DNA of 64,000 nt, from contig JABMLG010000001.1 of assembly GCA_013204985.1 (NCBI GenBank), positions 430,574 through 494,573 on the forward strand. Reading direction: 5' to 3'. Origin of the DNA: Microbacteriaceae bacterium VKM Ac-2855. GTDB taxonomy: Bacteria > Actinomycetota > Actinomycetes > Actinomycetales > Microbacteriaceae. Shown piece by piece: positions 321 through 48,040 of the stretch (the first letter of the stretch is position 1; each line of letters begins with the position of its first letter). The position numbers were made by a program, and so were the translations under genes. The notes beneath the pieces were generated by a model. It saw only the letters and a program-made list of their open reading frames with translations, searched no databases and had not been told where the DNA came from.

Positions 321-2119
321 GCGCCACAGCGAACAACCGGCGCCGCGAACCCGGCAAAGCCAACAACGACGGCCTCATGCTCGGCGGCACTCTCGCCGCG
401 ATCGCCGCAATCGGCATCGTCTGGATCGCCGTCGCCGTCGGCTCCAAGCTCGACGGCGTCAACGAGGGCCTGCCCTCGGATCCTTTCGAGATCCTCTCCG
501 GCCTCGCCCGCGGCACCGTCACCTGGTCAGCCGCCGCGACGGGGATCGCGCTGGGTGCGGTCGGCGCCCTCGCGGTCGTCGCGTTGTGGGTGGTGTGGTT
601 GCGCTCGCTCGGGCGGAAAAGCCGCTCGAGCGTGGACCACGCCGCCCGCTACATGGCCACCCAACGCGACCTCACACCCATGCTCCACAAGCAGGCACTA
701 CAGAAGTCCGCCCGCCTCGGCGTCACCGGCAACCCCGGCGTCCCCGTCGGGCGGCTGCACCTGGGAAAGCAGATGCTCTACGCCTCCTTCGAGGACATGA
801 TGCTCCTCATCGCCGGACCCCGCGTCGGCAAATCCACCTCCCTCGTCATCCCCGCGATCATGGCCGCACCCGGAGCTGTCGTCACCACCTCCAACAAACG
901 CGACGTCCTCGACGCCACCCGCGACGTCCGCGCCGAGAAAGGCCGCGTCTGGGTGTTCGACCCGCAACGCGTCGCGTTCGAAGACGCGACCTGGTGGTGG
1001 AACCCCCTCACCTACGTCACCGACGACACCAAAGCCGCGAAACTCGCGACCCACTTCGCCTCCGGCACCCGCGCCCTCAACGCGAAGACTGATGCCTACT
1101 TCGACGGCAAAGGGCAGGAATTGCTGTCGGACCTGCTGCTCGCCGCCGCCGTCGGACAACGTCCGATCAGCGAAGTGCTGCTCTGGCTGACCTCCGTCGA
1201 AGATGAAACCCCCGTCGAGCTTCTCTTCGACAACGGCTACCCCAGCAACGCCCGCGCCGTCCGCGGCATCATGAACACCGCCGAAAAAGCCCGCGACGGC
1301 ATCTACTCCACCGCCCAAGGCATGGCCATCTGCCTCAAAAGCGCCGCCACCGCCGACTGGGTCAACGCACGCCCGAGCGACACCCGACCGCAGTTCGTGC
1401 CGGAGACGTTCGTTACGTCCACCGAGACGCTGTATTCGCTCTCAAAAGAAGGCGCCGGAACCGCCGGGCCACTCGTGACCGCGCTGACCGCGGCGACGAT
1501 CGAGGCTGCCGAGGAGCACGCGGCGCGCTCGCGCGGCGGCCGGCTCGCGACGCCGCTGCTGGGCGTGCTCGATGAGGCCGCTAACGTGTGCCGGTGGAAA
1601 GACCTCCCGGACCTGTACTCGCACTACGGCTCCCGCGGCATCCCGATCATGGCCGTGTTCCAATCCTGGTCCCAAGGCGTCGGCGTCTTCGGCAAAGAAG
1701 GAATGCTGAAGCTCTGGTCCGCAGCGAACGTGAAGCTCTACGCCGGGGGAGTAGCCGAAGACGAATTCCTACGCACCCTCTCCGACCTCATCGGAACCTA
1801 TGACAAGGAAACCACCTCCTCCAGCTGGAACAAGGGCGTCCGCTCCACCACCTCCGCACTACGTCGCGAGAAGATCCTCGAAGTCGCCGACCTCACCAGC
1901 ATGAGCCGCGGACGCGCGATCATGCTCTCCTCCGGCGCCAGAGCCGCGCTCGTCGACACCGTCCCCTGGTATGAAGGCCCGAAAGAACAGGTCACCGCAA
2001 TCAACGCCTCCATCACGGCCCATGACGCGACCAGCGAACCGGCATCGGTAGACACGCGCACCCGCGAAGGAGCCTCCGGCGATGAGATCGATCGGGAGGC
2101 GGCGGCGCGAGCCGAGTGA
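317..2119 (+). CDS. TraG/VirD4-family type IV coupling ATPase
   Basis: A 600-residue membrane-anchored ATPase that would dock relaxase-bound DNA to the conjugation channel. Two hydrophobic segments lie near residues 22-42 and 73-95. A Walker A motif GPRVGKS is at 167-173 and a Walker B-like LLGVLDEAAN has its Asp-Glu at 419-420. The soluble domain after it ('PDLYSHYGSRGIPIMAVFQS') matches the TraM-recognition/TraG C-terminal region. The GTG start has a GGAG ribosome-binding site eight bases upstream and overlaps the preceding stop, and the next gene overlaps its stop by four bases, so this is one operon. It marks the end of an integrative conjugative element or integrated plasmid. Length and motifs are intact, so it is probably functional. 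Confidence 0.93.
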   Translation: MSATANNRRREPGKANNDGLMLGGTLAAIAAIGIVWIAVAVGSKLDGVNEGLPSDPFEILSGLARGTVTWSAAATGIALGAVGALAVVALWVVWLRSLGRKSRSSVDHAARYMATQRDLTPMLHKQALQKSARLGVTGNPGVPVGRLHLGKQMLYASFEDMMLLIAGPRVGKSTSLVIPAIMAAPGAVVTTSNKRDVLDATRDVRAEKGRVWVFDPQRVAFEDATWWWNPLTYVTDDTKAAKLATHFASGTRALNAKTDAYFDGKGQELLSDLLLAAAVGQRPISEVLLWLTSVEDETPVELLFDNGYPSNARAVRGIMNTAEKARDGIYSTAQGMAICLKSAATADWVNARPSDTRPQFVPETFVTSTETLYSLSKEGAGTAGPLVTALTAATIEAAEEHAARSRGGRLATPLLGVLDEAANVCRWKDLPDLYSHYGSRGIPIMAVFQSWSQGVGVFGKEGMLKLWSAANVKLYAGGVAEDEFLRTLSDLIGTYDKETTSSSWNKGVRSTTSALRREKILEVADLTSMSRGRAIMLSSGARAALVDTVPWYEGPKEQVTAINASITAHDATSEPASVDTRTREGASGDEIDREAAARAE

Positions 2120-2634
2120 TGGGCGACGACGATCTTTTCGACGTGGACGAGAGAGCATCCGCCGCTCTCGTCCAGGCACCACCGCCGGGATCGACTGAGG
2201 CGGAGCCTGGTTCCGGCCACCTCGACGAGGAGCGGACAACCTTCTACGGCTCGACCGATGAATGGGTCCGAAAGTTCTTACTCCCCATCTACCGCCGCCG
2301 CGTCACAGCAAAAGGACAGAGCGGCGGGTCGCGTTGGGCCGCCGAATGGTGGAACAGCGTCGAGGCAATGCTTCGCCTCGAATCACAATGGCGCATGTGG
2401 GAGGAAGCACGAAAGAATCCGGGTGAACTCAGCGCGTGGATGATCAACCACCTCGATGTGCACATGGGCGTGCTGCTGGCGATCGACGGACCATTCGCAA
2501 CGTCTTCAGACGAGAACCGGCCCGGCGAATCTCTGCCCTACCAACCACCACCGAACGGGATGTTCGCTTCCGACCTCCAGGCTGAGAGGCGAGTCGGTGA
2601 CACGAGCAAGGGCGACGAGGCGAAACCGACATGA
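2116..2634 (+). CDS. DUF4913 family protein of a conjugative element
   Basis: A 172-residue protein starting at GTG 2116 (or ATG 2119), with a four-base overlap with traG. The core 'YGSTDEWVRKFLLPIYRRR' followed by 'WAAEWWNSVEAMLRLESQW' and 'INHLDVHMGVLLAIDGPF' is the DUF4913 pattern, a domain of unknown function that typically follows TraG-like genes in actinobacterial plasmids and ICEs. The C-terminal 40 residues are polar and low in complexity. No catalytic residues are recognisable. It is the last gene of the transfer operon in this window; immediately beyond its stop the sequence turns into a truncated sugar oxidoreductase gene on the other strand. Confidence 0.85.
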   Translation: MMGDDDLFDVDERASAALVQAPPPGSTEAEPGSGHLDEERTTFYGSTDEWVRKFLLPIYRRRVTAKGQSGGSRWAAEWWNSVEAMLRLESQWRMWEEARKNPGELSAWMINHLDVHMGVLLAIDGPFATSSDENRPGESLPYQPPPNGMFASDLQAERRVGDTSKGDEAKPT

Positions 2635-2684
2635 GCTAAAGCTGGGCGCAAACTGCGGGCGATCGTCGACGTGAACCGAACGGG

Positions 2685-3158
2685 TATGTCGAAGTCGTGG
2701 ATCAGAGTCTCGTAGAAGATGGTCCACGGCTTTACCCGCTCCGGGTTCGCGAGGCCGGGGTCGCGGGTCAGAGAGCGTAGCAGCTGCACGGATCCGATGC
2801 CGCCCGTGGTGACGACGCGGTGCGCGGCGGCGAAGTCGGTGCCGAAGCGACGGCTGAAGCCCACCTGCCGCGGCACCCCGGCCGCGGCGGCGGCGGCGAC
2901 GACGAGGTTCGTGTGCGTGAACGCGGGGGAAGAGATCACCACGCCGTCGATCGAGTCATCCGGGAACAGCTCGGCCGCGTCCGTGTAGGTGATCGCCACG
3001 CCCAGAGGAGCGGCGACGCGCGCGGCCGCGCCGGGCGCCGGATCCGCGACGGCGGCGAGCTCCACGCCGTGGATGCGGCGGGCAATGGTCTCGGCGCGGA
3101 AGGCACCTATCCAACCGGAACCGATCAGACCGAGGCGGATGGGGGCGAGGGCGGGCAT
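2685..3158 (-). pseudogene. Gfo/Idh/MocA oxidoreductase, truncated and internally deleted
   Basis: The start at 3158 has an AGGAG ribosome-binding site, and the N-terminus 'IRLGLIGSGWIGAFRAE' is a complete Rossmann dinucleotide fold of the myo-inositol dehydrogenase type. After 'DGVVISSPAFTHTNLV' the protein runs through an alanine tract straight into 'GVPRQVGFSRRFGTDFAAAH'. The family normally has about 25-30 residues there, including the catalytic Glu-Lys-Pro loop, and these are missing. Homology ends after 'IFYETLIHDFDIP' near 2685, about 150 residues short of a normal C-terminus, just past the end of the conjugative module. An open frame continues to 2538 but is unrelated sequence. Loss of the catalytic lysine and of the substrate domain makes this a pseudogene. 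Confidence 0.88.
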
Positions 3159-3196
3159 GGTTTCTCCTGAGGACGACGGTGTCGACAGATCCGGAA

Positions 3197-3210
3197 CTAG
3201 ATCGGTCTAG
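3197..3210. promoter_or_regulatory. Candidate operator CTAGA-N4-TCTAG
   Basis: A perfect inverted repeat CTAGATCGGTCTAG lies about 40 bases upstream of the Gfo/Idh start and between it and the divergent aminotransferase relic. CTAG is rare in high-GC DNA, so two copies in a palindrome suggest a repressor site left from the original regulation of these genes. No cognate regulator is adjacent. Confidence 0.5.
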
Positions 3211-3316
3211 CTCCGTTCTGTGGTCCGGCTGTGCCCATGTCAATACAAGATCGACGCGGCGGCGGTGCTGCGAGGATTGTGTCGGCGGCAGCGGTCGCGA
3301 TGGTTAGCCTGGAGCG

Positions 3317-3853
3317 ATGACCGATCGGCGCATCCTGGAGCAGTCCTCCAAGCTGAGGAACGTCCTCTACGAGATCCGGGCCGTGCCCTCGTGGAGGCGT
3401 CGCAGCTGGAGGCGGACGGTCATCGAATCCTGAAGCTGAACATCGGCAACCACGCAGCGTTCGATTTCGAGGCACCGAAGCAGATCATGCGCGACATGAT
3501 CGCGGCGATGCCGCAGGCTCACGGCTACAGGGACAGCCAGGCATCCTCACGGCGCGTCGCGCCGTCTCGTACCGGTACGAGGAGGTGCCCGGTTTCCCGG
3601 AGGTGGATCCGGCGTGGGTGTTGCCGGGCAACGGGGTCTCGGAGCAGATCACGATGATGTTGCACGTTCTGCTCGACGACGGTGACGAGATGCTGATCCC
3701 CTCGCCCGACTATCCGTTGTGGACGGCGACGACGAGCCTCGCCCGCGGGGTCGCGCTGCACTACCGCTGCGACGAGGAGAACGGCTGGCAGCCGGACCTC
3801 GATGACATCCGCGCGAAGATCACGCCGCGCACGAAGGCCATCGTTGTCGTACG
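3317..3853 (+). pseudogene. Alanine-type aminotransferase (AlaA/AspC fold I), frameshifted and 3'-truncated
   Basis: The relic starts at ATG 3317 with 'MTDRRILEQSSKLRNVLYEIR', then jumps to another frame at about 3385 ('LVEASQLEADGHRILKLNIGN') and to a third at about 3535 ('ILTARRAVSYRYEEVPGFP', then 'VLPGNGVSEQITMMLHVLL'). These pieces are collinear with the first ~180 residues of class I PLP-dependent aminotransferases of the AlaA group. Homology stops at 'RTKAIVVV' near 3853. The PLP-binding lysine region and the C-terminal half are absent. Two frameshifts plus truncation exclude function. Confidence 0.88.
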
Positions 3854-37726: not shown

Positions 37727-38347
37727 GTGACCGGTCCCCGCGGCCCCTACCGCAAGAGCGCCGCGCAGCGACGTCGCATCCTGGACTCCGCCGAGACGAC
37801 CCTCCGGATGAGGGGAGTGGACGCGATCTCGTTGCAGGCCCTGGCCGCCGAGGCGGGCCTCTCGAGCGCAGGAGTGCTGCACCACTTCGGATCCAAGGAC
37901 GCCCTTGTCGCGCGCGCGGTCGCCGGCGTAGTCCGCCAGTTGCGGGAAGCGGGGCTCATCGCCGGTCACCTGGTGCGGAACCCGCAGCAATGGGTGATTC
38001 TGCTGGCCCGCGTCCGCGCCGTAGCGCCGGGACTGGGCCGGACCTCTTCGCTGCTCCTCCTCGGGACATCGGCGGCCAGCTTCGGCGACGGCTCCCCGTC
38101 TCGCGCCCACCTCCTCTATCAACGGCTGCGCACCCGCTTCCTCGCGGAACTCGCAGCGGAAACCGACAAGCAGACTGCTGCTCGTGTCATCGCACTGATC
38201 GACGGGAGCTGCCTTATCACCGGGAGGTCCGAGGAACTCACGGCGACGAGAGTCCTCCAAGAGGGAGTCCAATGGGCGATTAGATCGAGGGACAGAGGCG
38301 GTGCTTTTACGAAACCAGCGATCAGGGCTCACCCGGGAACCGGTTGA
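37727..38347 (+). CDS. TetR-family transcriptional regulator
   Basis: A 206-residue regulator beginning at GTG 37727, two bases after the sulfatase 4 stop. The N-terminal HTH is 'RRRILDSAETTLRMRGVDAI' and 'LQALAAEAGLSSAGVLHHFG', and the rest is an all-helical ligand domain. Being the last gene of the transporter-sulfatase operon, it may autoregulate it. Its 3' end overlaps the convergent PadR gene by 26 bases, so the last ~9 codons also code on the other strand. Confidence 0.85.
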   Translation: MTGPRGPYRKSAAQRRRILDSAETTLRMRGVDAISLQALAAEAGLSSAGVLHHFGSKDALVARAVAGVVRQLREAGLIAGHLVRNPQQWVILLARVRAVAPGLGRTSSLLLLGTSAASFGDGSPSRAHLLYQRLRTRFLAELAAETDKQTAARVIALIDGSCLITGRSEELTATRVLQEGVQWAIRSRDRGGAFTKPAIRAHPGTG

Positions 38348-38930
38348 ACTCGGAGTCATGGCGCGAGACCAACTTCAGTAGGCGGCTCTTGGTCGTGGTC
38401 AACCACGCGATGTGCGACATCGCGAGCTGATATCCGCGAGCCTCGCTCAAACCGGTGAGAGTTTCAATCCACTCGGCGTGGAATCCCGATTCCGGATGCA
38501 CCACGAACTCCTCGGGTGCGCGCAGGACGTCCCGGTCGCGCTCCTGCTCGAGGCGGTAGTCGAGCTCCTCGGACACAAGCCGCAGGGCGACAGACGGCGA
38601 GGAAATCCCCGCGAGCAAGAAACGCAGCTGGAAGTTGGCGTCTAGAGGACGAGGCGTCGGGACGTACTCCTCATCAATCCAGGCTTGGTAGCCGCGCCAG
38701 CCATCCTCAGTCAGGGCGTAGACCTTGGCGTCCGGGCCGGCTCTGTTCGAGTCGACGTTGAAGACGAGCAGGCCCCGCTCGACGAGCGAGGAGAGCTGCC
38801 GGTAGATCTGCGAGGACTTCGGCGAGTAGCCGAAGATCCGCCCGTTGCGCTCGAGGTACTTCGAGAGGTCATAACCGGTGCGCGGGTGCATCGCGATGAG
38901 GCCGATGAGCACCGAGTCGAGCAGATTCAC
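38322..38930 (-). CDS. PadR-family transcriptional regulator 2
   Basis: A 202-residue paralogue of PadR 1, with the same winged helix ('IFGYSPKSSQIYRQLSSLVE', 'GPDAKVYALTEDGWRGY') and helical tail. The start is GTG 38930. Compared with PadR 1 it lacks the first two residues, and I see no good ribosome-binding site, so it may be leaderless. Its C-terminal end overlaps the TetR gene. No transporter or sulfatase lies downstream; the only glycan gene on its other side is the truncated GH3 at 39722-40762, so its original target operon may be partly lost. Confidence 0.88.
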   Translation of the reverse strand: MNLLDSVLIGLIAMHPRTGYDLSKYLERNGRIFGYSPKSSQIYRQLSSLVERGLLVFNVDSNRAGPDAKVYALTEDGWRGYQAWIDEEYVPTPRPLDANFQLRFLLAGISSPSVALRLVSEELDYRLEQERDRDVLRAPEEFVVHPESGFHAEWIETLTGLSEARGYQLAMSHIAWLTTTKSRLLKLVSRHDSEFNRFPGEP

Positions 38931-39180
38931 CGTCGCGACGATACCGGGTACCGCTGGTCTCGAAGCACATCAGCTTCTGCGTTGCAGCAGTGATGCTGTC
39001 TGCGGCGCCCAGACGACGTTGCCGGGGCAGACGAGTCGAGGAAGACGGACGCGGCGCACCACCGAGCAGACCAGAGCCCGTCGCGAGAGCGAGATCGATG
39101 CCTTGCGGAAGGAGATCAGGCCCGTCCCTGCAAAACCTATCTGCGCCAACCAGCGGGGCGTGCTCACAGGATATCTAGCC
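38931..39180. other. Intergenic stretch upstream of PadR 2
   Basis: No gene recognised. It must contain the PadR 2 promoter. Scattered open frames on both strands have no ribosome-binding sites or familiar protein text. Confidence 0.4.
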
Positions 39181-39372
39181 GTGGACGCTTCAATACAGGT
39201 CGCCGTCATCGGGGCGATCGTCTCGTTCGTTGTCGCGATCATCCCGAGCCTCAGTAGCTTTGTTCTCCAGTGCGCGAAACTGAAGCAAGACCTTCGTGCG
39301 GAGTTGATGGCGGAGCTAGAGCTTCGCCAACTCCTATACGCTCAAAATGACATCTACGATCACTTCTCATGA
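39181..39372 (+). CDS. Small hypothetical protein with one transmembrane segment
   Basis: A 63-codon frame from GTG 39181. Residues 5-30 ('QVAVIGAIVSFVVAIIPSLS') form one strong hydrophobic helix, followed by a charged amphipathic tail ('KLKQDLRAELMAELELRQLL') that could be a coiled coil. The codon use is less GC-rich than its neighbours. The helix-plus-charged-tail layout looks like a real small membrane protein, but there is no clear ribosome-binding site and I do not recognise the family. Confidence 0.4.
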   Translation: MDASIQVAVIGAIVSFVVAIIPSLSSFVLQCAKLKQDLRAELMAELELRQLLYAQNDIYDHFS

Positions 39373-39721
39373 TTAATCGCCGTGTCGGGGTTCGTTTCAG
39401 ATGAGCTGCGCCAGCTTCTCGCAAGTTCCGGAGCAGTCCGATTTCAGAAGAACTCTTCTGCCCCTGAGTATTGGGGTTCGATGAGCGCTGTCCCGACCTA
39501 ACGGACCTCGATGGCGACCTCCGCAGAGACGAACGTGACTGACTTGGCGCGACCCGCTCCACCGGTCGCGCTCTGGGCGGCCGAACGCGAGGGCGCCTGC
39601 ACGCATTTGTCTGCAAGAAGATCCGAACGCTCGGCGGAGTTCGGAATAGGGATGCGTCGCGCGAGAGCCCGCGGTGGCGAGGCGTCGCGCAGACTGGTAC
39701 CTGGCCTGCGATCCGCAGAGG
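39373..39721. other. Gene-less stretch before the broken GH3 gene
   Basis: Roughly 350 bases with lower GC than the surroundings. I see no gene, repeat or hairpin that I can support. It lies downstream of the GH3 remnant and probably contains debris. Confidence 0.4.
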
Positions 39722-40762
39722 TCACTGCAGACGCCAGCTGAGGTGTAGCGGAGTATCTAGGAGAGACGCGCCCACATGCAGCGAAAACTCGCCGGGCTCG
39801 GTTCGCCAGCCGTTCTCGGTCCAGTGCGCGAGCCGACGCTCCGGGATCGGAACGGTGGCGCGAACGCACTCGCCAGGGGCCGCCCTGACCACAGCGAAGC
39901 CCACTAGCCAGCGCTCGGGTCGCTCGATCGCACTCGCGTCCCGCTCAGCGTAGACCTGCACGACCTGCTTCCCCGCCCGATTCCCCGTGTTGCGGAGGTC
40001 CACCTCGATCACGTCCCCATGACGGTCTGCGGCCTCCCACTGCCACGTCGTGAAGCCCAACCCGTGCCCGAAAGGGTGGAGCGGTTCGATCCCTTTCCGA
40101 AGCCACGCCCGGTAGCCGACGTGGATGCCCTCGTCGTAGCGCAAGACCCCCTCGGCCGGCGTGACCTCGGTCACGGGCGCCTGCTCGAGGGAGCGCGGCC
40201 AGGTCGACGGCAGGCGCCCGCCGGGTTCGGCGTCGCCGGTGAGGATCGCCGCCACCGCGGCTCCGAATTCCTGCCCTCCGAAGAAGCCCTGGAGTACTGC
40301 CGCGACCCGGGGTGCCCAGGGCAGCAGGACCGGGGCTCCCGCGTTGAGAACGACGATCGTGCGCGGGTTGACCGCGGCGACCGCTTCTACGAGATCGTCC
40401 TGACGACCGGGCAGGCGCAGATCCGTCCTGTCGTGGCCCTCGGACTCGACCTGGGAGTTGGTGCCGACCACGACGACAGCGACCTCCGCTCTGCGAGCGG
40501 CGTCGACAGCGCGCGCGATGAGCTCGTCTGGATCCGAGGTATCGGGTGCGATCCCGAGGGTGAGGCTCAGTGCGGCCCGGGAGATCGCGAACGCGTCGAT
40601 GACGAACTCTGCTCGGAGCGCCACTGAACGGCCCGCGATCAGATGCACGGAGGTCGTCGCCGACGGGGGGTTCAAGAACGATGCGCCTAGCTGGGCACCC
40701 TCGGCGGCGAGCGCTTCGTTGAGAACGAGCCGGCCGTCGACGAAGAGACGACCCGAGCTCAT
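39722..40762 (-). pseudogene. GH3 glycosidase truncated to its C-terminal half
   Basis: The 346-codon frame aligns end to end with the second half of the intact GH3 at 22825-25302: 'RLFVDGRLVLNEALAAEGAQ' matches its PA14 region, 'VVVVGTNSQVESEGHDRTDL' its acid/base domain, and 'EVDLRNTGNRAGKQVVQVYA' its fibronectin-like end. The entire (alpha/beta)8 barrel with the nucleophile is missing. Homology stops at about 40760, exactly where the recombinase-bearing segment begins, so an insertion or deletion removed the front. An ATG at 40762 is present, but a protein lacking the nucleophile cannot hydrolyse glycosides. Confidence 0.9.
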
Positions 40763-40819
40763 TCAGTCCGAGATCCTGATTAGCTTCCCAGCATGTCGGC
40801 GACCTGCGTAGGACCGGAC

Positions 40820-40839
40820 AATATCCGATAATTGATATT
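40820..40839. repeat. AT-rich inverted repeat AATATC-N8-GATATT
   Basis: A six-base perfect inverted repeat, with imperfect GACA/TGTC extensions outward, in an AT-rich block between the GH3 truncation point and the integrase. It could be the left end of the inserted segment, a promoter operator, or part of the recombination site. Confidence 0.5.
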
Positions 40840-40861
40840 ATGTCAGTTTAACCCTGGCACG

Positions 40862-40878
40862 TTCGCATCTGATGCGAA
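40862..40878. repeat. 17-base palindrome TTCGCATC-T-GATGCGAA
   Basis: A perfect eight-base inverted repeat around one base, about 180 bases upstream of the integrase. Its TGCGAA core recurs three more times next to the integrase start, so it is probably a binding site for the recombinase or its small HTH partner. Confidence 0.65.
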
Positions 40879-41037
40879 TTGGCCGGTTCCCTCGACCTGC
40901 GCGTTAGGACGCGGCGGTCGGGCGTGGAGATGTTGCGCAGACGTGCCGAGTGGGTGGCGCGGCGTGCGCGTGTCGGGTGGTCAGAACGGCCGTTGACCAG
41001 GATTTCTCCGAAGTCGTTGACATCGGTTCGCGGTTAA

Positions 41038-41063
41038 TGCGAATCTTTCGCACATCATGCGAA
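41038..41063. repeat. Three alternating TGCGAA/TTCGCA elements at the integrase start
   Basis: TGCGAA (41038-41043), TTCGCA (41047-41052) and TGCGAA (41058-41063) lie in alternating orientation, the last overlapping the ATG at 41057. They share the core of the 40862 palindrome. Binding here would block expression, so an autoregulatory operator or recombination core site is likely. Confidence 0.6.
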
Positions 41064-42187
41064 GGGTCGAGGAGGTCGTTCCGGGCGCGGTTCCCGTTCA
41101 TCTTCAGGGCGCTGTCGCGGTCTTGAACGCTGAGGAGACGGTGTGGGAGGCGATGCTCGGCGGGTGGCGGGCGCAGCAGCTCGCTCGGAACCTGGCGCCA
41201 TCGACGGTTGATCGTCGGCGTGAGTTGGTGAGCCGGTTCCGGCGCTTCGTTGATGCCTACCCATGGTCGTGGACGGTTGGCGGGGTGGATGAGTTCTTTC
41301 TCGAGCTGCGCGCTGTCGGCGGCCTGTCTCAGTCGACGATCCTGGGCTATCAGGGCGCGCTGCGGATGTTCCTCGAGTACGTCTGCGATCCCCGTTACGG
41401 CTGGGTGGAGCAGTGCTGGCAACGCTTCGGCGATCACCCGGCTCAGGTGTTCCACGAATGGAACACCGCCCGTCACGCGCAGAACGGGATCGCGCAGCCG
41501 GGCAAACGTCCCTACACCCGGGATGAGCTGCAGGACCTGTTCGATTGCGCCGATGAGCGCGTGCTCCGAATACGGAAGCAGGGCAGCAAGGGCTGGGTCG
41601 CCGCGTTTCGGACGGCGACGATGATGAAGGCCGCCTACGCCTGGGGTCTGCGCCGTAACGAGGTCCGCTCGCTGGACCTCGTCGACTGCGCTTCGAATCC
41701 GGCCGCACGGCAGTTCGGCGATTTCGGGATCATCTACGTCCGTTTCGGGAAAGCGATGCGCGGGTCTCCGCCGAAGCGACGCAGCGTGTTGAGCCTGCCG
41801 GAGATGGATTGGTCGACGGAGATCATGCGGCAGTGGATTGAGGAGGTCCGTCCGCTGATTGCCCGCCCGAAGGCGAGCTGTCTTTGGCCGTCGGAGCGCG
41901 GTGGCATGATCACCGCTGACGCGGTCAGCCGAGCGTTCAATGAGGTCAAGCGCGAAGCCGGCCTGGATGATGAGCTCGACTTCCACTCGCTGCGACGCTC
42001 CTACGTCACGCACCTGCTCGAGGACGGTTACGACGCGTTCTTCATCCAGCAGCAAGTCGGCCACGAGCACGCGTCCACGACGTCGATCTACACCGGCGTC
42101 TCTCCCGACTACCGCGCCCGCGTCGTCGGCGACGCGATCGCTCGCATGGCTGCGGCTATTACCTCCACCACCACAGCGAAGGACTGA
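41057..42187 (+). CDS. Tyrosine recombinase/integrase (first gene of a trio)
   Basis: A 376-residue phage-integrase-type recombinase. Residues about 25-125 are the SAM-like core-binding domain ('GWRAQQLARNLAPSTVDRRR'). The catalytic set is complete: R199 in 'AWGLRRNEVRSLDL', H310 and R313 in 'FHSLRRSYVTHLL', H336 in 'QQVGHEHAST' and nucleophile Y345 in 'TSIYTG'. The TGCGAA palindromes surround its start codon. It is followed after one base by the HTH gene and then, with overlap, by the zinc-ribbon gene, so the three are one transcript. It probably moved this segment into the GH3 gene. Confidence 0.93.
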   Translation: MRRVEEVVPGAVPVHLQGAVAVLNAEETVWEAMLGGWRAQQLARNLAPSTVDRRRELVSRFRRFVDAYPWSWTVGGVDEFFLELRAVGGLSQSTILGYQGALRMFLEYVCDPRYGWVEQCWQRFGDHPAQVFHEWNTARHAQNGIAQPGKRPYTRDELQDLFDCADERVLRIRKQGSKGWVAAFRTATMMKAAYAWGLRRNEVRSLDLVDCASNPAARQFGDFGIIYVRFGKAMRGSPPKRRSVLSLPEMDWSTEIMRQWIEEVRPLIARPKASCLWPSERGGMITADAVSRAFNEVKREAGLDDELDFHSLRRSYVTHLLEDGYDAFFIQQQVGHEHASTTSIYTGVSPDYRARVVGDAIARMAAAITSTTTAKD

Positions 42188-42188
42188 G

Positions 42189-42521
42189 ATGCGACGACGA
42201 ATCGAATACGGCTGGCGACTGCGTGAACTGATGGCTGCCCGAGGGATGAACACGATCTCCGACCTGCTCCCCCACCTCGGGGACCGCGGCATCGAGCTCT
42301 CCGCGTCACAGATCTATCGCCTCGTCGGCTCCAAACCGGAACGGATGAACCTCACGCTGCTGGGCGCGCTGCTGGACACCCTCGACTGCAGCTTCGAGGA
42401 CCTCTGCCCCACCACCGTCGAGGCCGAAAGCTCACGAACTCCGAAGAAGGCCGTCGGAGACGGGACGGCCCCGGACGGCGTGGTGCGGCCGGCGCGAGCT
42501 CGGATCCGTCGGCCGGAATGA
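42189..42521 (+). CDS. Small XRE-like helix-turn-helix protein (second gene of the trio)
   Basis: A 110-residue protein. The first 80 residues form a Cro/CI-type HTH ('YGWRLRELMAARGMNTISDL', 'IELSASQIYRLVGSKPERMN', 'LLGALLDTLDCSFEDL'). The tail is basic and disordered. It sits between two recombinase-fold genes, starting one base after the integrase stop and overlapping the third gene by four bases. It could be a directionality factor or the repressor that reads the TGCGAA palindromes. Confidence 0.87.
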   Translation: MRRRIEYGWRLRELMAARGMNTISDLLPHLGDRGIELSASQIYRLVGSKPERMNLTLLGALLDTLDCSFEDLCPTTVEAESSRTPKKAVGDGTAPDGVVRPARARIRRPE

Positions 42522-43975
42522 CCGGCCCGCGAACCCCGGGCGGACGCTACTGCGTCCGCTGCGCAGCGACCGGGGTGAAATTCGCGACGACCTGGCCGGA
42601 AGGGAGCATCTGCCGACGCTGCTACCAGCAGGCCACCCGCCGACACGGCACCTGCCCGCTCTGCCTCACCCCACGACTGCTGCCCGGGCGCATCGGCGAC
42701 ACCGACGTCTGCACCGACTGCGCCGGCATCCCGAAAGACTTCCACTGCAGCCGATGCGGCCGCGAAGACGAACCCGCCCGAGTGGGGCTCTGCGCCCACT
42801 GCGCCCTGACCGATGACCTCACCGCGCTCCTGGACGACGGCACCGGACACATCGCTCCAGCCCTGCTCCCCATCCACACGGCACTCACCGGGCAGAGCCA
42901 TGCCCGCAGCGCAACGATCTGGCTGATCACTAACCCGGACGCCGCCGCGCTGCTGCGGGATCTCGCGCAAGGGGTCCGGCCGCTGGAGCACGCCACCTTC
43001 ACCAGCCACCCGCACCCGCGGAGGGTCGCGTTCCTGCATGAGCTGTTCATCGAGCACCAACTGTTGGACCCGATGAACCTCGACATTGAACGCTTCCAGA
43101 CCTGGCTCATCGCCAAGCTCTCCCCCGCAGCTGAATCGGACGCGAGAATCGTCACGCAATATGCCCGCTGGGTCCACCTCAACCGGATGCGCCACCTCGC
43201 CGAGACCGGCAGCCTGAGCAAGGGAACGATCCTCTCCGCGAAGCAGTCGACCACCGTTGCTCTCGACTTCCTCGCTTTCCTCGCCAGCCGCGCCACGACC
43301 CTGGACCGATGCGAGCAAGGCGACATCGACCAGTGGCTCGCGGACGGCCCCACCACCCGCAGCCTGGCCCGCGGATTCGTCCGCTGGGCGATCGAGCACC
43401 ACCACGCACCCCAGCTCGAGTTCCCCTACCGCGTCGCGAAAACGGAACCCGTCCTGAGCCAGAAGCAGCGCCTCGCACTCATCCGTCTGGTCGTCGATGA
43501 AGACACCGACCTGGCCGACTCCGATCGCGCCGCCGCAGTGCTCTTCCTCGTCTTCGGACAACCACTCACCCGAATCTCACGCATGACGCCCGACCAGATC
43601 AAAAGCCAAGACCAGACGATCATCCTGCGACTGACCGACGATGAGCTCCTCGTCCCACCACCCTTCGACGACATCCTGATCCGACACCTGGAACGGCTCC
43701 CCCACCAGACAACGGCGGCCCACCGCGGTGACGCGCGCTGGCTCTTCCCCGGCGCCCGACCCGGGCAACCCATCAACCAGAACACCCTCATGACGCGCAT
43801 CCGCGACGCGGGCATCGATCTCCGCGCCGCCCACAACGCGACCATGCGGGCCCTCGTCCTCGACATCCCCGCCGCGATCGTCGCCGACTCGCTCGGATAC
43901 AGCTACCAGATCGCCGACAAGCACCGCCGCAACTCTGGCGCCACCTTCATCGATTACGTCAACCGCCGCGGCTGA
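42518..43975 (+). CDS. Zinc-ribbon protein with a recombinase-like C-terminus lacking the tyrosine nucleophile (third gene of the trio)
   Basis: A 485-residue protein. The first ~110 residues hold six C-x-x-C knuckles (CVRC, CRRC, CPLC, CTDC, CSRC, CAHC), i.e. about three zinc ribbons. Residues 160-300 look like a core-binding helical domain ('NLDIERFQTWLIAKL'), and the C-terminal part resembles a tyrosine-recombinase catalytic domain ('FGQPLTRISRMTPDQI', 'AHNATMRALVLDIPAAIVAD'). The expected Gly-His is Gly-Tyr (Y461), and the nucleophile position holds Lys-His-Arg (468-470) instead of Tyr. It is therefore probably catalytically inactive and acts as a DNA-binding partner of the integrase. The family is not one I can name. 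Confidence 0.8.
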   Translation: MTGPRTPGGRYCVRCAATGVKFATTWPEGSICRRCYQQATRRHGTCPLCLTPRLLPGRIGDTDVCTDCAGIPKDFHCSRCGREDEPARVGLCAHCALTDDLTALLDDGTGHIAPALLPIHTALTGQSHARSATIWLITNPDAAALLRDLAQGVRPLEHATFTSHPHPRRVAFLHELFIEHQLLDPMNLDIERFQTWLIAKLSPAAESDARIVTQYARWVHLNRMRHLAETGSLSKGTILSAKQSTTVALDFLAFLASRATTLDRCEQGDIDQWLADGPTTRSLARGFVRWAIEHHHAPQLEFPYRVAKTEPVLSQKQRLALIRLVVDEDTDLADSDRAAAVLFLVFGQPLTRISRMTPDQIKSQDQTIILRLTDDELLVPPPFDDILIRHLERLPHQTTAAHRGDARWLFPGARPGQPINQNTLMTRIRDAGIDLRAAHNATMRALVLDIPAAIVADSLGYSYQIADKHRRNSGATFIDYVNRRG

Positions 43976-43986
43976 ACGCGATGAGA

Positions 43987-44046
43987 GCGTTCCCCGCCTA
44001 CCGGGGCGCGGCCGCCGAGCGTGTCGGCCATTTCAGCGGGGAACGC
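43987..44046. repeat. 11-base inverted repeat downstream of the recombinase trio
   Basis: GCGTTCCCCGC (43987-43997) and GCGGGGAACGC (44036-44046) are perfect inverted copies separated by 38 bases, starting 12 bases after the third recombinase gene's stop. It may be the operon terminator or part of the element's end. Confidence 0.65.
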
Positions 44047-44149
44047 AGATCGACGATATCAAGACGGGGCCACAAACTCGGTGAAGCACGAGTGTCGCCA
44101 ACCCTCCAACAACATCAGCTCGGTCCAGCTCAAGCCGACATCGGAAGCC

Positions 44150-44186
44150 GAATACGCCGGTCACGAATACGCAGGTCCGTCGCTAA
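44150..44186. repeat. 37-base direct repeat, copy 1
   Basis: Begins GAATACGCCGGTCAC and ends GCTAA. It matches copy 2 (44884-44920) at 31 of 37 positions in the same orientation. The two copies flank the unknown gene at 44202-44867. Confidence 0.75.
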
Positions 44187-44201
44187 GCCTTGGCGGCTTG
44201 A

Positions 44202-44867
44202 TCATCCAAGACCCCGCTCGCTCAAGTCGGCTCTCAGTCGCCGAGCTTCGATCCTCACGGTCTCCGGGAGCGAATCACGAGGCTTTTCGTCGCGGATCAG
44301 TTCGCCCAGAGCCTGTGAATACATGCCGTCGGAGAGCAGGAAAGACAACCGAGACCGAAGGTCAGGTGAGAGAGAATCAGTTCGATTTTGGGTGATTTCG
44401 ACAACGCGAGCGAAATGCTCGGCCAGGTCCCGATCATGGGCCAGCGCGTCGGCCAGAGCTGCAGGGGTCAGCCCTGCGATTGACGGTGTTGACGGGAGCG
44501 CCAGCCTCTTGCCGACTCGCGCGACTGCCGCGCGGACATCCGCCAGACCCAAACCGGCCGGATCCCCCGTCCGAAGCATGCTGCGGGCGGGTCGATGCAT
44601 CGTCACTCGCAGCACGCGCCCGCTCAACCGAACGGTCGTGTGCGTCTTTAAAGTCTCGTTCATGAAGAACCCCTCTACTTCGACGCCATCGACCGGTGAC
44701 TGCGAGAGCCACGCGTCGCCAGCGACGGACACCTGATCCCAAGCATCCATAACCGTCCGGAGATAAAGCACGGGCGTGTCCGACGACAACCAGTGGCCCC
44801 GGTACTGCACCTTCCTCAGCACAGACGCAGGAAAATCGACCCCCGGGACTCCCGTCACATCAGCCAC
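44202..44867 (-). CDS. Hypothetical protein flanked by direct repeats
   Basis: A 221-residue protein starting at GTG 44867. I do not recognise a family. The N-terminal ~110 residues have a beta-rich pattern ('LRKVQYRGHWLSSDTPVLYL', 'VEVEGFFMNETLKTHTTVRL'), and the C-terminal ~100 are helical and charged ('LTPAALADALAHDRDLAEHF', 'LRSRLSFLLSDGMYSQALGE'). No signal peptide or membrane segment. It is transcribed towards the recombinase trio and lies between two 37-base direct repeats, so it may be a passenger gene of a mobile cassette. The opposite strand is also open but reads as low-complexity Ser/Arg text, so the minus strand is the coding one. Confidence 0.65.
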   Translation of the reverse strand: MADVTGVPGVDFPASVLRKVQYRGHWLSSDTPVLYLRTVMDAWDQVSVAGDAWLSQSPVDGVEVEGFFMNETLKTHTTVRLSGRVLRVTMHRPARSMLRTGDPAGLGLADVRAAVARVGKRLALPSTPSIAGLTPAALADALAHDRDLAEHFARVVEITQNRTDSLSPDLRSRLSFLLSDGMYSQALGELIRDEKPRDSLPETVRIEARRLRADLSERGLG

Positions 44868-44883
44868 CCACCAATCTTGGCGC

Positions 44884-44920
44884 GAATACGCCGGTCACCA
44901 GCACGCCGGACCGTGGCTAA
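44884..44920. repeat. 37-base direct repeat, copy 2
   Basis: The second copy, with six mismatches to copy 1, lies 17 bases upstream of the unknown gene's GTG start, so it also overlaps that gene's probable promoter. Confidence 0.75.
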
Positions 44921-45099
44921 CGATAATCACCCTCGGAGGACGCTCGATGGTGCTCCCCCGACGTGCGCTGCATTGTGCCGGAGTGCCGTGGATGCGCCGG
45001 ATGCGCTCCACTGCGGCGACGACGGAGTTCTAGTTGAACCACCCACTGGGCGGACGTCTCCGTAGCTCCGCACGGGCCGGCGGGCGGCGGAATACGACG

Positions 45100-47205
45100 T
45101 CACGCAGAACCTGCTGGAAGGGTGGAGCTGCGGCGCGCGGCGCGGATGCCGTTGGCGATGATCACGACTTCGGCGAGTTCGTGCACGAGCACGACTCCCG
45201 CGAGTCCCAGTGCACCCGTCAATGCGAGCGGGAAGAGCACGATGATCACCGCGAGGGCGAGGGCGATGTTGGCGGTCATGATCCGCCGGCCTCGTCGGGC
45301 GTGCAACAGCGCGGCGGGGATGAGGCGCAGATCGGAACCGGTGAACGCGATGTCGGCCGACTCGATCGCCGCGGCCGACCCGGTCGCGCCCATGGCGATG
45401 CCGACGTCGGCGGAAGCCAGGGCCGGGGCATCGTTGATACCGTCACCTATCATCGCCACGACGCGGCGTTTCTGGAAGCCGCCGATCGCATCCGCCTTCT
45501 GCGCCGGACTCTGCTCGGCATGGACTCCGGAGATCCCCAGCTGAGAAGCGAGCGCGTGCGCGGTGCGCGAGTTGTCGCCGGTGAGCATCACCGAGCCGAT
45601 GTGGAGCCGCTTCAATTCAGCAATGGCCGCCGCGGCCTCCGGCTTGAACTCGTCCCGGATCCCGATGAGGCCGAGAGGGGTGCCGGCGCGTTCGAGAACC
45701 ACGACGGTCATCCCGGCATCCTCCAACTCGTCGCGGCGCTTCGCCAGCGGGCCGGCCGGTACCCAGCGAGGGCTGCCCGCGCGCACGCCGACATCGCCGG
45801 AACGCCCCGAGATCCCCTCCCCCGGATGCTCCGTCACATCCGAGACAAGCGCCGCATGCGGTGCCGCAGCAACGACGGCGGTCGCCAACGGATGCGTGCT
45901 GTGCGCCTCCAGGGCTGCCGCGAGGTTCAGGATCTCGTCGCGATCGGTCCCGTCGACGCCGACGACCTCGATGACGCTCGGCCGGTTGCGGGTGAGAGTG
46001 CCGGTCTTGTCGAACGCGACGAGCTGCACGCTCCCCAGCTGCTCGAACGCGTGCCCGGATGTGATGATCAAGCCGAAGCGACTCGCCGCTCCGATCGCGG
46101 AGATCACCGTCACCGGCACCGCGATCGCCAGCGCGCAGGGCGATGCGGCGACGAGCACCACCAGAGCACGCTCGGTCCAGGTGTCCGTATCTCCGACCAG
46201 CACACCGAACAGAGCGATCAGACCTGCGACGACGAGGACGAGCGGCACCAGCGGTTTCGCGATCCGGTCGGCCAGGCGCGCTCGATCACCCTTCTTCGCG
46301 TGCGCCTGCTCCACGAGGCGAACGATGGTGGTGAGGGAGTTGTCAATCCCGTTCGCGGTCGCCTCGATCTGAAGGGCACCACCTCCGTTGATCGATCCGG
46401 CGCTGACCGGGTCACCTGGGCCGACCTCGACCGGGATCGATTCGCCGGTGACCGCGGAGGTGTCCACGCTCGAACGACCCGACACGACGACGCCGTCCGT
46501 CGCAACCCGCTCCCCCGGCCGGACGACGAGGATGTCGAACTCCTGCAAATCCCTCGCCGCGACGATGACGTCGCCGCCGAGTCTGGACACGATCGCGGTC
46601 TCCGGGATCAGATGCAGCAGGGCCCGCAGACCCGAGCGAGCTCGATCCATCGCCCGATCTTCGAGCGCCTCCGCGATGGAGAAGAGGAACGCCAGCGCGG
46701 CCGCTTCGCCGACGTGGCCCAGCAGGACCGCCCCCAGAGCCGCGATGCTCATCAGCAGCCCGACTCCCAGCCTGCCGGCCAACAACCGGCGCACGGCGCC
46801 GGGAACGAACGTCGACGCGCCGGCGACCAGGCTCGCCGCCAGCACCACCGGCGCCGCAACCGGTGCACCGGTCCACTCCATGAGGTAACCGGCGAGGAGC
46901 AGGACACCCGAGGCGACGGGGATCAGAACGTTCAGGTCCCGCCACCACGACACGGACTCTTCATCGTCATGGCCGTGCTCATCGTCATGGCCGTGGCCGT
47001 CATCGTCATGGCCGTCATCATCGTGGGAGTGCGGGGCGGCCTCGTGCGAGCGAGCGGGTGCGGCAGCACGAGCCGGCGGGCCGGGGCGACTGCTCAGCGT
47101 CATCGCTACGGGCTCGGGTGCGCAGCACGCGTCGGCGCGATCGGGTCGCAGCAACAGAGGGCGGCGGATCGGGACCTCGTCTCCCCCGCAGCACTCGGCG
47201 CTCAT
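45100..47205 (-). CDS. Heavy-metal P1B-type ATPase with SPC motif
   Basis: A 701-residue metal-exporting ATPase; I chose ATG 47205, which overlaps the sensor gene's stop (ATGA). The N-terminus has several Cys pairs (ECCGGDE, ACCAPEP) and a His/Asp-rich segment near residues 60-82, probably a metal sponge. The transport site is 'LVAASPCALAIAVPV': SPC rather than CPC, as in P1B-4 (Co/Zn/Cd) pumps. The phosphorylation motif 'AFDKTGTLTRN', 'TGES' and 'MIGDGINDAPAL' are intact, and a conserved His-Glu ('VLVHELAEV') lies in the last helix. With the CmtR-like sensor it forms a cadmium/lead (or Co/Zn) resistance pair. Confidence 0.94.
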   Translation of the reverse strand: MSAECCGGDEVPIRRPLLLRPDRADACCAPEPVAMTLSSRPGPPARAAAPARSHEAAPHSHDDDGHDDDGHGHDDEHGHDDEESVSWWRDLNVLIPVASGVLLLAGYLMEWTGAPVAAPVVLAASLVAGASTFVPGAVRRLLAGRLGVGLLMSIAALGAVLLGHVGEAAALAFLFSIAEALEDRAMDRARSGLRALLHLIPETAIVSRLGGDVIVAARDLQEFDILVVRPGERVATDGVVVSGRSSVDTSAVTGESIPVEVGPGDPVSAGSINGGGALQIEATANGIDNSLTTIVRLVEQAHAKKGDRARLADRIAKPLVPLVLVVAGLIALFGVLVGDTDTWTERALVVLVAASPCALAIAVPVTVISAIGAASRFGLIITSGHAFEQLGSVQLVAFDKTGTLTRNRPSVIEVVGVDGTDRDEILNLAAALEAHSTHPLATAVVAAAPHAALVSDVTEHPGEGISGRSGDVGVRAGSPRWVPAGPLAKRRDELEDAGMTVVVLERAGTPLGLIGIRDEFKPEAAAAIAELKRLHIGSVMLTGDNSRTAHALASQLGISGVHAEQSPAQKADAIGGFQKRRVVAMIGDGINDAPALASADVGIAMGATGSAAAIESADIAFTGSDLRLIPAALLHARRGRRIMTANIALALAVIIVLFPLALTGALGLAGVVLVHELAEVVIIANGIRAARRSSTLPAGSA

Positions 47206-47555
47206 GCGTCCACTCCGCAGCACAGCGGCACGTCGCAGTTCTGGTCGACGCAGTCGACGCCGTCGTCAACGGCGAGAACCACATCGAGCACCGCCAGCAA
47301 CGCCCTCGTCAGGTGCGGATCCGCGATCTCGTACCGGGTGCTGCGCCCCTCCGGCACGGCGGCCACGATGCCGCAGCCGCGCAGGCACGTCAGGTGATTC
47401 GACACGTTCGAGCGGGTGAGGTCCAGCGACCGTGCCAGCTGACCGGGATATCCGGGCTCCTCCATCAGCGCCAGCAGGATCCGCGAGCGCGTGGGGTCGG
47501 CCATCGCCCGCCCCAGACGATTCATCACATCGAGACGCGAAGCAATAGTCAGCAT
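47202..47555 (-). CDS. cmtR: CmtR-like cadmium/lead-sensing ArsR-family repressor
   Basis: A 117-residue winged-helix repressor. Cysteines fall at C57 and C61 in 'SNHLTCLRGCG' and at C102 in 'GVDCVDQ', the same numbers as the metal ligands of mycobacterial CmtR, which senses Cd/Pb. The C-terminus has three more cysteines (QNCDVPLCCG). The gene is translationally coupled to the P1B ATPase, and a palindrome lies just upstream of its start. Metal binding would release DNA and induce the pump. Confidence 0.9.
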   Translation of the reverse strand: MLTIASRLDVMNRLGRAMADPTRSRILLALMEEPGYPGQLARSLDLTRSNVSNHLTCLRGCGIVAAVPEGRSTRYEIADPHLTRALLAVLDVVLAVDDGVDCVDQNCDVPLCCGVDA

Positions 47556-47567
47556 GCGATGACCTTA

Positions 47568-47579
47568 CAGCGTTCGCTG
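47568..47579. promoter_or_regulatory. Candidate CmtR operator CAGCG-TT-CGCTG
   Basis: A perfect inverted repeat 13 bases upstream of the cmtR start, with a further GTCAGC/GCTGAC pair at 47548-47553 and 47576-47581. The position is right for autorepression. Confidence 0.55.
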
Positions 47580-47616
47580 ACATGAGGCGGTGGCGCTGTC
47601 GTCGCGCGAGCTCGCG

Positions 47617-47967
47617 TCAGATCGAGACGAGCAGCGCGGCGACGTTATCCAGTGCACCGGGCACGAGCCGGAAGTACGCCCAGGTCCCTCTCTTGGATCG
47701 CGTCAAGAATCCGGCCTCGACCAGAATCTTCAGATGGTGCGACACCGTCGGCTGCGACAGACCCAGCGGCTCCGTCAGATCGCAGACGCACGCCTCCGAG
47801 CCGTCGTGCGAAGCAACCATGGACAACAGCCGCAATCGTGCGGGATCCGCGAGAGCTTTCAGGGTTCGGGCCATCGCCTCGGCATGGTCGGCTGCGATCG
47901 GCTCTCCCGACGCCGGATCACATGAGGCGGACACATCCGTGATCGGGAGGAGTTCGGCGACGGGCAT
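47617..47967 (-). CDS. arsR: ArsR-family arsenic-responsive repressor
   Basis: A 116-residue ArsR/SmtB protein. 'ACVCDLTEPLGLSQPTVSHH' includes the C60-x-C62 pair at the start of the recognition region used by many ArsR proteins to bind As(III). 'ALADPARLRLLSMVASHDG' is the dimer/HTH start. It is divergent from arsC across a 93-base region holding a TTGACA element and a palindrome, so it is the repressor of the rightward arsenic genes. It is distinct from the adjacent CmtR-like protein in sensor cysteines. Confidence 0.9.
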   Translation of the reverse strand: MPVAELLPITDVSASCDPASGEPIAADHAEAMARTLKALADPARLRLLSMVASHDGSEACVCDLTEPLGLSQPTVSHHLKILVEAGFLTRSKRGTWAYFRLVPGALDNVAALLVSI

Positions 47968-47988
47968 ACGAACAGCTTGCCACCAATA

Positions 47989-48040
47989 TTGACAACCGTC
48001 GATGTTCTACCCGACACTGACTGCATCGAAGTCCGTCGAT
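47989..48040 (+). promoter_or_regulatory. arsC promoter and candidate ArsR operator
   Basis: A consensus -35 TTGACA is at 47989-47994. Downstream, ATCGA-N6-TCGAT at 48025-48040 is a perfect five-base inverted repeat, 20 bases before the arsC start, within the arsR-arsC divergent region. Confidence 0.5.

What the first reader, a model, noticed from the sequence alone, without database searches (positions are those of the whole stretch)
41057..43975. Recombinase trio: active integrase, small HTH protein, and zinc-ribbon pseudo-recombinase
Three coupled genes encode a complete tyrosine recombinase, a Cro-like protein and a six-CxxC zinc-ribbon protein with a recombinase-like fold that has Gly-Tyr for Gly-His and Lys-His-Arg where Tyr should be. 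It differs from Tn554 (two active recombinases plus TnpC) and from RIT elements (three active recombinases). A dead, zinc-armed subunit could act as a target-site selector or synapsis scaffold for the active one.
Basis: partly seen in the sequence, partly recalled or inferred. Interest (0 to 1): 0.8.

Follow-up and report, generated by a model that had tools for sequence, protein, structure and literature searches.

The report
Transposon that lands beside dif
Three linked genes form a compact mobile DNA element, found in many actinobacteria, that often inserts right beside dif, the site where bacteria separate copied chromosomes; one of its proteins looks like a recombinase that has lost its catalytic residues and gained a zinc-binding arm.

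Summary
The three genes are real and conserved. They are the core of a 3,336-bp mobile unit (window 40850-44185): an identical second copy lies about 151 kb away in the same genome, so both ends are exact. Gene 1 keeps six tyrosine-recombinase catalytic residues in 29 of 29 distinct sequences. Gene 3 has six CxxC pairs (30 of 31) and no Tyr at the nucleophile column (0 of 31); its C-terminal half aligns with Xer-type recombinases. The order int-HTH-Zn holds in 44 of 49 copies; 3 are cut by contig ends and 2 are decayed.

The element starts 4 bp after the XerD arm of a dif-like site. Of 38 testable int copies, 25 have such a site upstream, at or above the best of 1,520 shuffles; 13 do not. Two plasmids show one site occupied and empty, without target duplication. 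Stacked copies occur.

It moves most like Tn554 and SE elements but fails their gene-content tests. Dead recombinase-fold subunits (Tfp, GinC) and dif-adjacent insertion (IS1202 family) are each known; I found no description of this combination. The dead subunit's role is inferred.

The parts
40821..40848 (+). dif-like 28-mer (target, not part of the element); core pattern GATAATTGATATTATGTCA at 40827-40845
   Evidence: one of only two such sites in the genome at <=1 mismatch; PWM score 44.5; numbering of the 28-mer follows E. coli dif from recall
40850..40905 (+). Left end of the element; holds palindrome GTTCGCATCTGATGCGAAT at 40861-40879
   Evidence: Identity with the second copy begins at 40850; palindrome; 3' limit of the left end is approximate
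41026..41064 (+). Two further TTCGC..GCGAA palindromes overlapping the int start: probable operator/promoter region
   Evidence: function inferred
41057..42187 (+). int: tyrosine recombinase, catalytic residues R199 K232 H310 R313 H336 Y345
42189..42521 (+). Cro/C1-type HTH protein
42518..43975 (+). Zinc-ribbon (six CxxC) protein with a recombinase-like C-terminal half lacking catalytic residues
43987..44046 (+). Perfect 11-bp inverted repeat (43987-43997 / 44036-44046) just after gene 3, possible terminator
   Evidence: function inferred
44149..44185 (+). Right end: direct repeats CGAATACGC(C/A)GGTC at 44149-44162 and 44164-44177, element ends GTCGCTA at 44185
   Evidence: Identity with the second copy ends at 44185; repeats
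44883..44919 (+). Second right-end-like sequence (84% identical to the element's right end), possibly left by an older unit

Best explanation
The trio is the transposition module of a compact transposon that inserts beside dif. Shown by sequence: a mobile unit with exact ends; insertion just outside the dif 28-mer, 4 bp after TTATGTCA; no target duplication in the one occupied/empty pair; in identical pairs the right-end 4-mer stays with the element while the left 4-mer can differ with the target; units stack beside one site. Inferred: Int uses the XerD-type arm of dif as one half of its core site and an inverted, similar sequence in the left end as the other, and exchanges strands in the few bases between, probably through a circular or joined-end intermediate with an asymmetric outcome as described for SE elements and Tn554. 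The HTH protein probably regulates the operon through the TTCGC..GCGAA palindromes. The zinc-armed dead recombinase probably takes a non-cleaving place in the synaptic complex and helps to hold or choose the dif-side DNA (this step alone perhaps 0.4). Since dif stays intact, insertion should cost the host little, and dif-like sites on plasmids offer a way between replicons.
For: Identical 3,336-bp copies with unrelated flanks, each at one of the genome's only two dif-like sites. Catalytic set intact in 29 of 29 distinct int sequences. 25 of 38 int copies have a dif-like site within 500 bp upstream, scoring at or above the maximum of 1,520 mononucleotide shuffles; 22 of the 25 in the same orientation at 221-336 bp from int. 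Occupied and empty versions of one site in FB24 and Sphe3 plasmids. A. echini P9 and AM23 carry the same trio proteins beside different dif-like sites. Tandem units without dif between them in pA and stacked A-B units in the own genome. Trio order in 44 of 49 copies.
Against: 13 of 38 int copies have no dif-like site; 2 are inner units of stacks, but 11 are not explained that way, including a clade with longer gene-3 products and Streptomyces copies, and Streptomyces gives 111 of 245 plasmid hits. Only one clean empty site was found. The 38 copies are not all independent. No excision product is shown: the 4,712-bp 'plasmid' pD may be an assembly artefact. Gene 3 against int by profile-profile was not significant. 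Nothing was tested at the bench.
Confidence: 0.75

Rival explanations
1. Host XerCD moves the unit at dif-like sites and the trio is a passenger, as in IMEX-type elements or dif modules.
For: Every clear target is a Xer site; dif-to-dif plasmid fusion is seen in P. ureafaciens AT versus strain AT5.
Against: The junction lies outside the dif core and outside the 28-mer; no second dif flanks the right end of the window or L021 copies; the element keeps its own intact recombinase in 29 of 29.
Confidence: 0.08
2. The element is a derived Tn554-type transposon whose large recombinase (TnpB) lost its active site and became gene 3.
For: No target duplication and an asymmetric junction, as the SE paper reports for Tn554; actinobacterial Tn554-like pairs exist.
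Against: The FB24 plasmid 1 pair (listed as Famint36/41) matches only weakly: int profile E=2.6e-10 and 4e-7, gene-3 profile E=2e-4 on the long protein, no HTH gene; the long protein shows its own Y at the nucleophile motif and no six-CxxC head.
Confidence: 0.12
3. Gene 3 is mainly a zinc-ribbon regulator or a directionality factor and has no part in site choice; int alone recognises dif.
For: Some records call gene 3 'Fis family transcriptional regulator'; the int profile's best PDB match is XerD, which could suffice to bind the XerD arm.
Against: Gene 3 aligns with both the core-binding and catalytic regions of a Xer-type recombinase, more than a regulator needs.
Confidence: 0.35

Closest known systems
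SE elements (strand-biased circularizing integrative elements; IntA-Tfp-IntB-Srap)
   Same: A recombinase-fold protein without the catalytic motif (Tfp) beside an active recombinase; target specificity; target bases kept at attL and element-borne bases at attR (PMC10214605, abstract and passages)
   Different: SE has two active recombinases and Srap and was found only in Gammaproteobacteria; the present trio has one active recombinase, a Cro-like protein and a zinc-ribbon head
Tn554 family and actinobacterial Tn554-like pairs
   Same: Several recombinase genes in a row, site-specific, no target duplication
   Different: Two active recombinases (plus TnpC in some); the FB24 plasmid 1 pair is only distantly similar
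GInts and RIT elements
   Same: Multi-gene recombinase modules; GinC lacks the catalytic Tyr
   Different: GInt has four genes GinA-D; RIT has three recombinases reported with catalytic motifs (PMC3414803, PMC10214605, passages)
IS1202 family (ISAjo2 type)
   Same: Inserts at a fixed short distance from dif/pdif in one orientation
   Different: DDE transposase with terminal inverted repeats and target duplication, 5 bp from the XerC site, mostly Acinetobacter and other Gram-negatives (PMC10132070, start of abstract and passages)
IMEX and Acinetobacter dif modules
   Same: Use dif-like sites on chromosomes and plasmids
   Different: Rely on host XerCD recombining within dif (recalled, and abstract starts in listings); here own recombinase and a junction outside dif

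Membership tests
Tyrosine-recombinase transposon (broad kind) | Discrete unit moved by its own tyrosine recombinase with intact catalytic residues | tested here: met
   Exact unit in two identical copies; six catalytic residues in 29 of 29; that int does the moving is inferred
Tn554 family | Two active tyrosine recombinases (TnpA, TnpB) plus TnpC | tested here: not met
   Gene 3 lacks the catalytic Tyr in 31 of 31; direct comparison with the FB24 plasmid 1 pair; TnpC not compared
Tn554 family | No target duplication, asymmetric junction | tested here: met
   FB24/Sphe3; identical pairs
SE elements | Operon intA-tfp-intB plus srap, two active recombinases | tested here: not met
   Only int, HTH and Zn genes between the exact ends of the window copy; sequence comparison with Tfp itself not done
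SE elements | Strand-biased circularization, copy-out movement | not testable with these tools
   Needs PCR or sequencing of intermediates
GInts | Four genes GinA-GinD | tested here: not met
   Three genes within exact ends
RIT elements | Three recombinase genes with catalytic motifs | tested here: not met
   One catalytic recombinase, one HTH protein, one dead recombinase-like protein
IS1202 family | DDE transposase and target duplication | tested here: not met
   Genes 1-3 show no DDE transposase family; no target duplication
IMEX-type elements | Integration by host XerCD within dif, dif on both flanks | tested here: not met
   Junction outside dif; dif-like site at the left only

The most novel reading that the evidence does not exclude
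A new transposon class in which the dead, zinc-armed recombinase is the target selector: it docks on dif, or on Xer bound at dif, in the place of one Xer subunit and brings the active integrase to the edge of the chromosome-separation site, so the element lands at the replicon terminus or at a plasmid's own resolution site without breaking it.
Probability: 0.3. Interest if true: 0.87.

Novelty: new variant of a known kind. Interest (0 to 1): 0.72.

Why it matters
A chromosome usually has one dif. A transposon family that uses its edge as a landing pad, stacks there and is found on chromosomes and plasmids would explain part of the gene turnover next to actinobacterial dif sites, and would flag 'recombinase XerD' and 'Fis family transcriptional regulator' labels in plasmid records as misleading. 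It also makes an open question directly testable in a small system (3.3 kb, three genes, exact ends, one known empty site): what a catalytically dead recombinase does in a multi-subunit recombinase transposon.

Tried and rejected
Membership in RIT and Tn554 was tested and rejected. Host XerCD as sole agent was put low on junction position. Defence reading: no PADLOC match for the three proteins. Phage origin: no gene-3 match in 50,697 phage records; in viral contigs 27 stretches matched a pattern and none was confirmed. pD as proof of excision was set aside because its record ends fall exactly on the element junction. AM23 as an empty site for L022 was not clean: about 20 kb of other DNA lies between dif and the matching right flank. 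Searches for an empty version of the window site failed: the left flank hit mainly the glycosidase part in relatives, the right flank hit only the own genome (1 of 60). Similar sequence right of dif in four same-genus genomes (L071, L072, L079, L081) looked like element ends; ORFs in the three I examined (not L081) point to ordinary synteny. No Rfam match in 38000-48000. The fuzzy right-end search also gives chance hits at 4-5 mismatches, so right ends for L024, L025, L031 and L089 are uncertain. Paper search was uninformative (too loose).
Full report
OBSERVATION. The three ORFs are present as described. Gene 1 is a tyrosine recombinase, gene 2 a Cro/C1-type HTH protein; gene 3 matches no family significantly. 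Among 31 distinct relatives (44 hits; those under 400 aa and duplicates dropped), the 12 cysteines are in 30, Tyr is in the nucleophile column in none, and His is in the Gly-His column in none. The column facing the second catalytic Arg is still basic (25 R, 4 K, 2 H), and column 352, next to the Arg-I position, is R or K in 29 of 31, so the loss is not total. Gene 1 keeps R199, K232, H310, R313, H336 and Y345 in 29 of 29 distinct sequences (39 hits; those under 330 aa and duplicates dropped).

FOLD OF GENE 3. The gene-3 profile hits small canonical recombinases in distant genomes at E about 1e-7 (L155, L156, L158; weaker in L157). In L158 the alignment runs through both core-binding and catalytic regions (profile 250-468), in L155 and L156 through the catalytic region, and the same ORFs match the int profile. 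Pfam Phage_integrase is hit in 4 of 20 members, best E=0.00095, below its cut-off. Against this, the direct profile-profile comparison with int was not significant, although its alignment is co-linear, and the profile found nothing convincing in the PDB. I take a recombinase-like C-terminal half as likely, not proven.

A MOBILE UNIT WITH EXACT ENDS. The genome holds a second copy identical over 3,336 bp: window 40850-44185 = L021 8765-12100, with different flanks. Downstream of that copy lies a diverged trio B (35-47% identity), followed by a remnant 85% identical to the left end of A over 85 bp.

THE TARGET IS DIF-LIKE. To the left of both copies is CCGATAATnnnnATTATGTCAnnnn with different centres and 4-mers. 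Arthrobacter echini P9 and AM23 carry the same trio proteins beside different dif-like sites. Frankia alni dif is proposed as CACGCCGATAATGCACATTATGTCAAGT (PMC3025954, passage read). The pattern GATAATN5TTATGTCA with at most one mismatch occurs in 57 of 60 related genomes: once in 38, two to nine times in 19, absent in 3; the reversed-pattern control hit 2 of 60. The window's genome has two such sites, both occupied. The L021 site has the canonical centre, and its left flank is syntenic with an unoccupied dif in G008, so I take it as the chromosomal dif; the window's site is a second, dif-like one.

A scoring matrix was made from 45 dif sites of relatives' loci (L039-L083). Some of those genomes carry a trio elsewhere; L069-L083 showed no trio near dif, L039-L068 were not checked for one. 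With it, 25 of 38 int copies that have at least 280 bp upstream score 12.3 or more within 500 bp upstream; 1,520 mononucleotide shuffles of the same stretches reach at most 12.3 (99th percentile 1.8), and one of the 25, L105, only equals that maximum. In 3,120 random windows of the same loci the 95th percentile is -1.9 and the 99th 32.6, since those windows can include the real sites. Of the 25, 22 have dif in the same orientation 221-336 bp from int and 3 have it reversed (L111, L112 minus strand, L151). Four further copies had too little upstream sequence. Copies are not all independent (W and L021 A, L022 and L023, L102 and L103 are pairs). Direct adjacency of left end and dif is exact for the pairs and for FB24; for the others it rests on similar left ends read by eye.

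THE 13 EXCEPTIONS. Two are inner copies of stacks (L021 B, L102 second). L108 and L110 have a different palindrome, GGATAAT..ATTATCC. L093, L094, L095, L152 and L153 encode long gene-3 products or gene-3 regions and share no dif. L084 keeps only the XerD half-site, L147 scores 6.4, L107 and L150 have nothing. So dif targeting is the rule in much of the family, not in all of it; Streptomyces, represented here by L107, gives 111 of the 245 plasmid hits.

OCCUPIED AND EMPTY SITE. Arthrobacter FB24 plasmid 2 and P. phenanthrenivorans Sphe3 pASPHE302 share flanks (99.6% left; 91 and 94% right). Sphe3: TTATGTCAACTA|AAGTTG. FB24: TTATGTCAACTA|GTGCTC...GCCACTA|AAGTTG, element 3,579 bp. There is no target duplication apart from ACTA, which both target and right end carry. 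Sphe3 has a decayed inverted trio (about 3.6 kb; Zn and HTH genes annotated, only a short int remnant) on the XerC side of the same dif, where FB24 is empty. In W/L021 and L022/L023 the left 4-mer differs and the right one is the same; in YJN5-1/YJN5-2 both are the same. The SE paper describes such an asymmetry for SE and Tn554-related elements (PMC10214605, passages).

STACKING AND CARGO. P. ureafaciens pA has two identical units head to tail, period 4,714 bp, with no dif between. In L026 a B-like left end follows an A-type right end directly (by eye). Some right-end-like motifs lie well beyond the trio, with other genes between (L024 about 1.8 kb; 4 mismatches), so cargo is likely but its limits are uncertain. 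In P9 a 1.7-kb segment with one large ORF lies between dif and a right-end-like sequence with 5 mismatches, possibly a non-autonomous unit.

THE CIRCLE THAT MAY NOT BE ONE. Record pD (4,712 bp, circular, no annotated replication gene) equals one unit. Its ends fall exactly on the element junction and it is 2 bp shorter than the tandem period, as a collapsed repeat edge of an assembly graph would be. I do not count it as evidence for excision.

DISTRIBUTION. Gene-3 relatives: 245 of 72,556 plasmid records (169 with at least 80% coverage), 0 of 50,697 phage records, 9 of 60 related genomes including the own one, 28 of 396 genomes drawn from the phylum. Of 49 gene-3 copies examined, 44 have HTH and int upstream in order (in L109 an IS separates int), 3 are at contig ends, 2 are decayed. 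Listed plasmid records label gene 3 'recombinase XerD', 'Fis family transcriptional regulator', 'site-specific recombinase' or 'hypothetical protein'.

MECHANISM. Most likely int binds the XerD-type arm of dif and an inverted, similar sequence in the left end (TGRCATnTT in several members, judged by eye, not tested statistically) and exchanges strands in the bases between. The palindromes TTCGC..GCGAA in the left end and over the int start suggest that one protein binds both; the HTH protein is the natural candidate. Gene 3 is conserved with the rest yet should not cleave, so an architectural or target-holding part is the simplest reading. All of this paragraph is inference.

LITERATURE. Nine searches (105 uninformative) gave no description of this trio or of a tyrosine-recombinase transposon inserting beside dif. 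The library holds only open-licence PMC papers, so this is not proof of absence. Read: passages of PMC10132070; abstract and passages of PMC10214605; passages and section 10 of PMC3414803; passages of PMC3025954. Everything else was seen as a search listing. The nearest earlier grouping in these hosts is the actinobacterial Tn554-like class of PMC3414803; its FB24 plasmid 1 example was compared directly and is distinct.

VERDICT. A real, widely found transposon family with a defined target in much of its range, new as a combination as far as I could search, built from known kinds of parts. Interest 0.72.

Noticed in passing
L161, L165 (NZ_CP136442.1, Paenarthrobacter sp. AT5) and L162, L166 (NZ_CP094492.1, P. 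ureafaciens AT pC): A 50.5-kb plasmid carrying atzC in strain AT appears within a larger plasmid of strain AT5, with dif-like sites at both junctions: probable dif-to-dif plasmid fusion.
   Followed up: partly
window 39722-40762 (- strand): Family 3 glycosidase gene whose match starts at position 58 of the C-terminal domain profile: it looks truncated about 60 bp from the dif-like site.
   Followed up: partly
window 45100-47555 (- strand): P-type ATPase (E1-E2) and an ArsR-family regulator lie close downstream of the element; the L031 relative has an ArsR-like gene after its trio (read by eye).
   Followed up: partly
L112 (NZ_CP127860.1, Kocuria rosea plasmid): Two divergent trios flank a single dif-like site, one on each side.
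   Followed up: partly
L089 (G060:C42:24000-41000, reverse strand, about 2060-3777): A 1.7-kb segment with one large ORF between dif and a right-end-like sequence, possibly a non-autonomous unit.
   Followed up: partly
G005, G010, G014 and other same-genus genomes: Several extra dif-like sites per genome (9 in G005, 6 in G010, 5 in G014), some on small contigs; nature unknown.
   Followed up: no
L108, L110: Trios in Rhodococcus and Mycolicibacterium plasmids next to a GGATAAT..ATTATCC palindrome instead of dif: maybe another resolution site.
   Followed up: no
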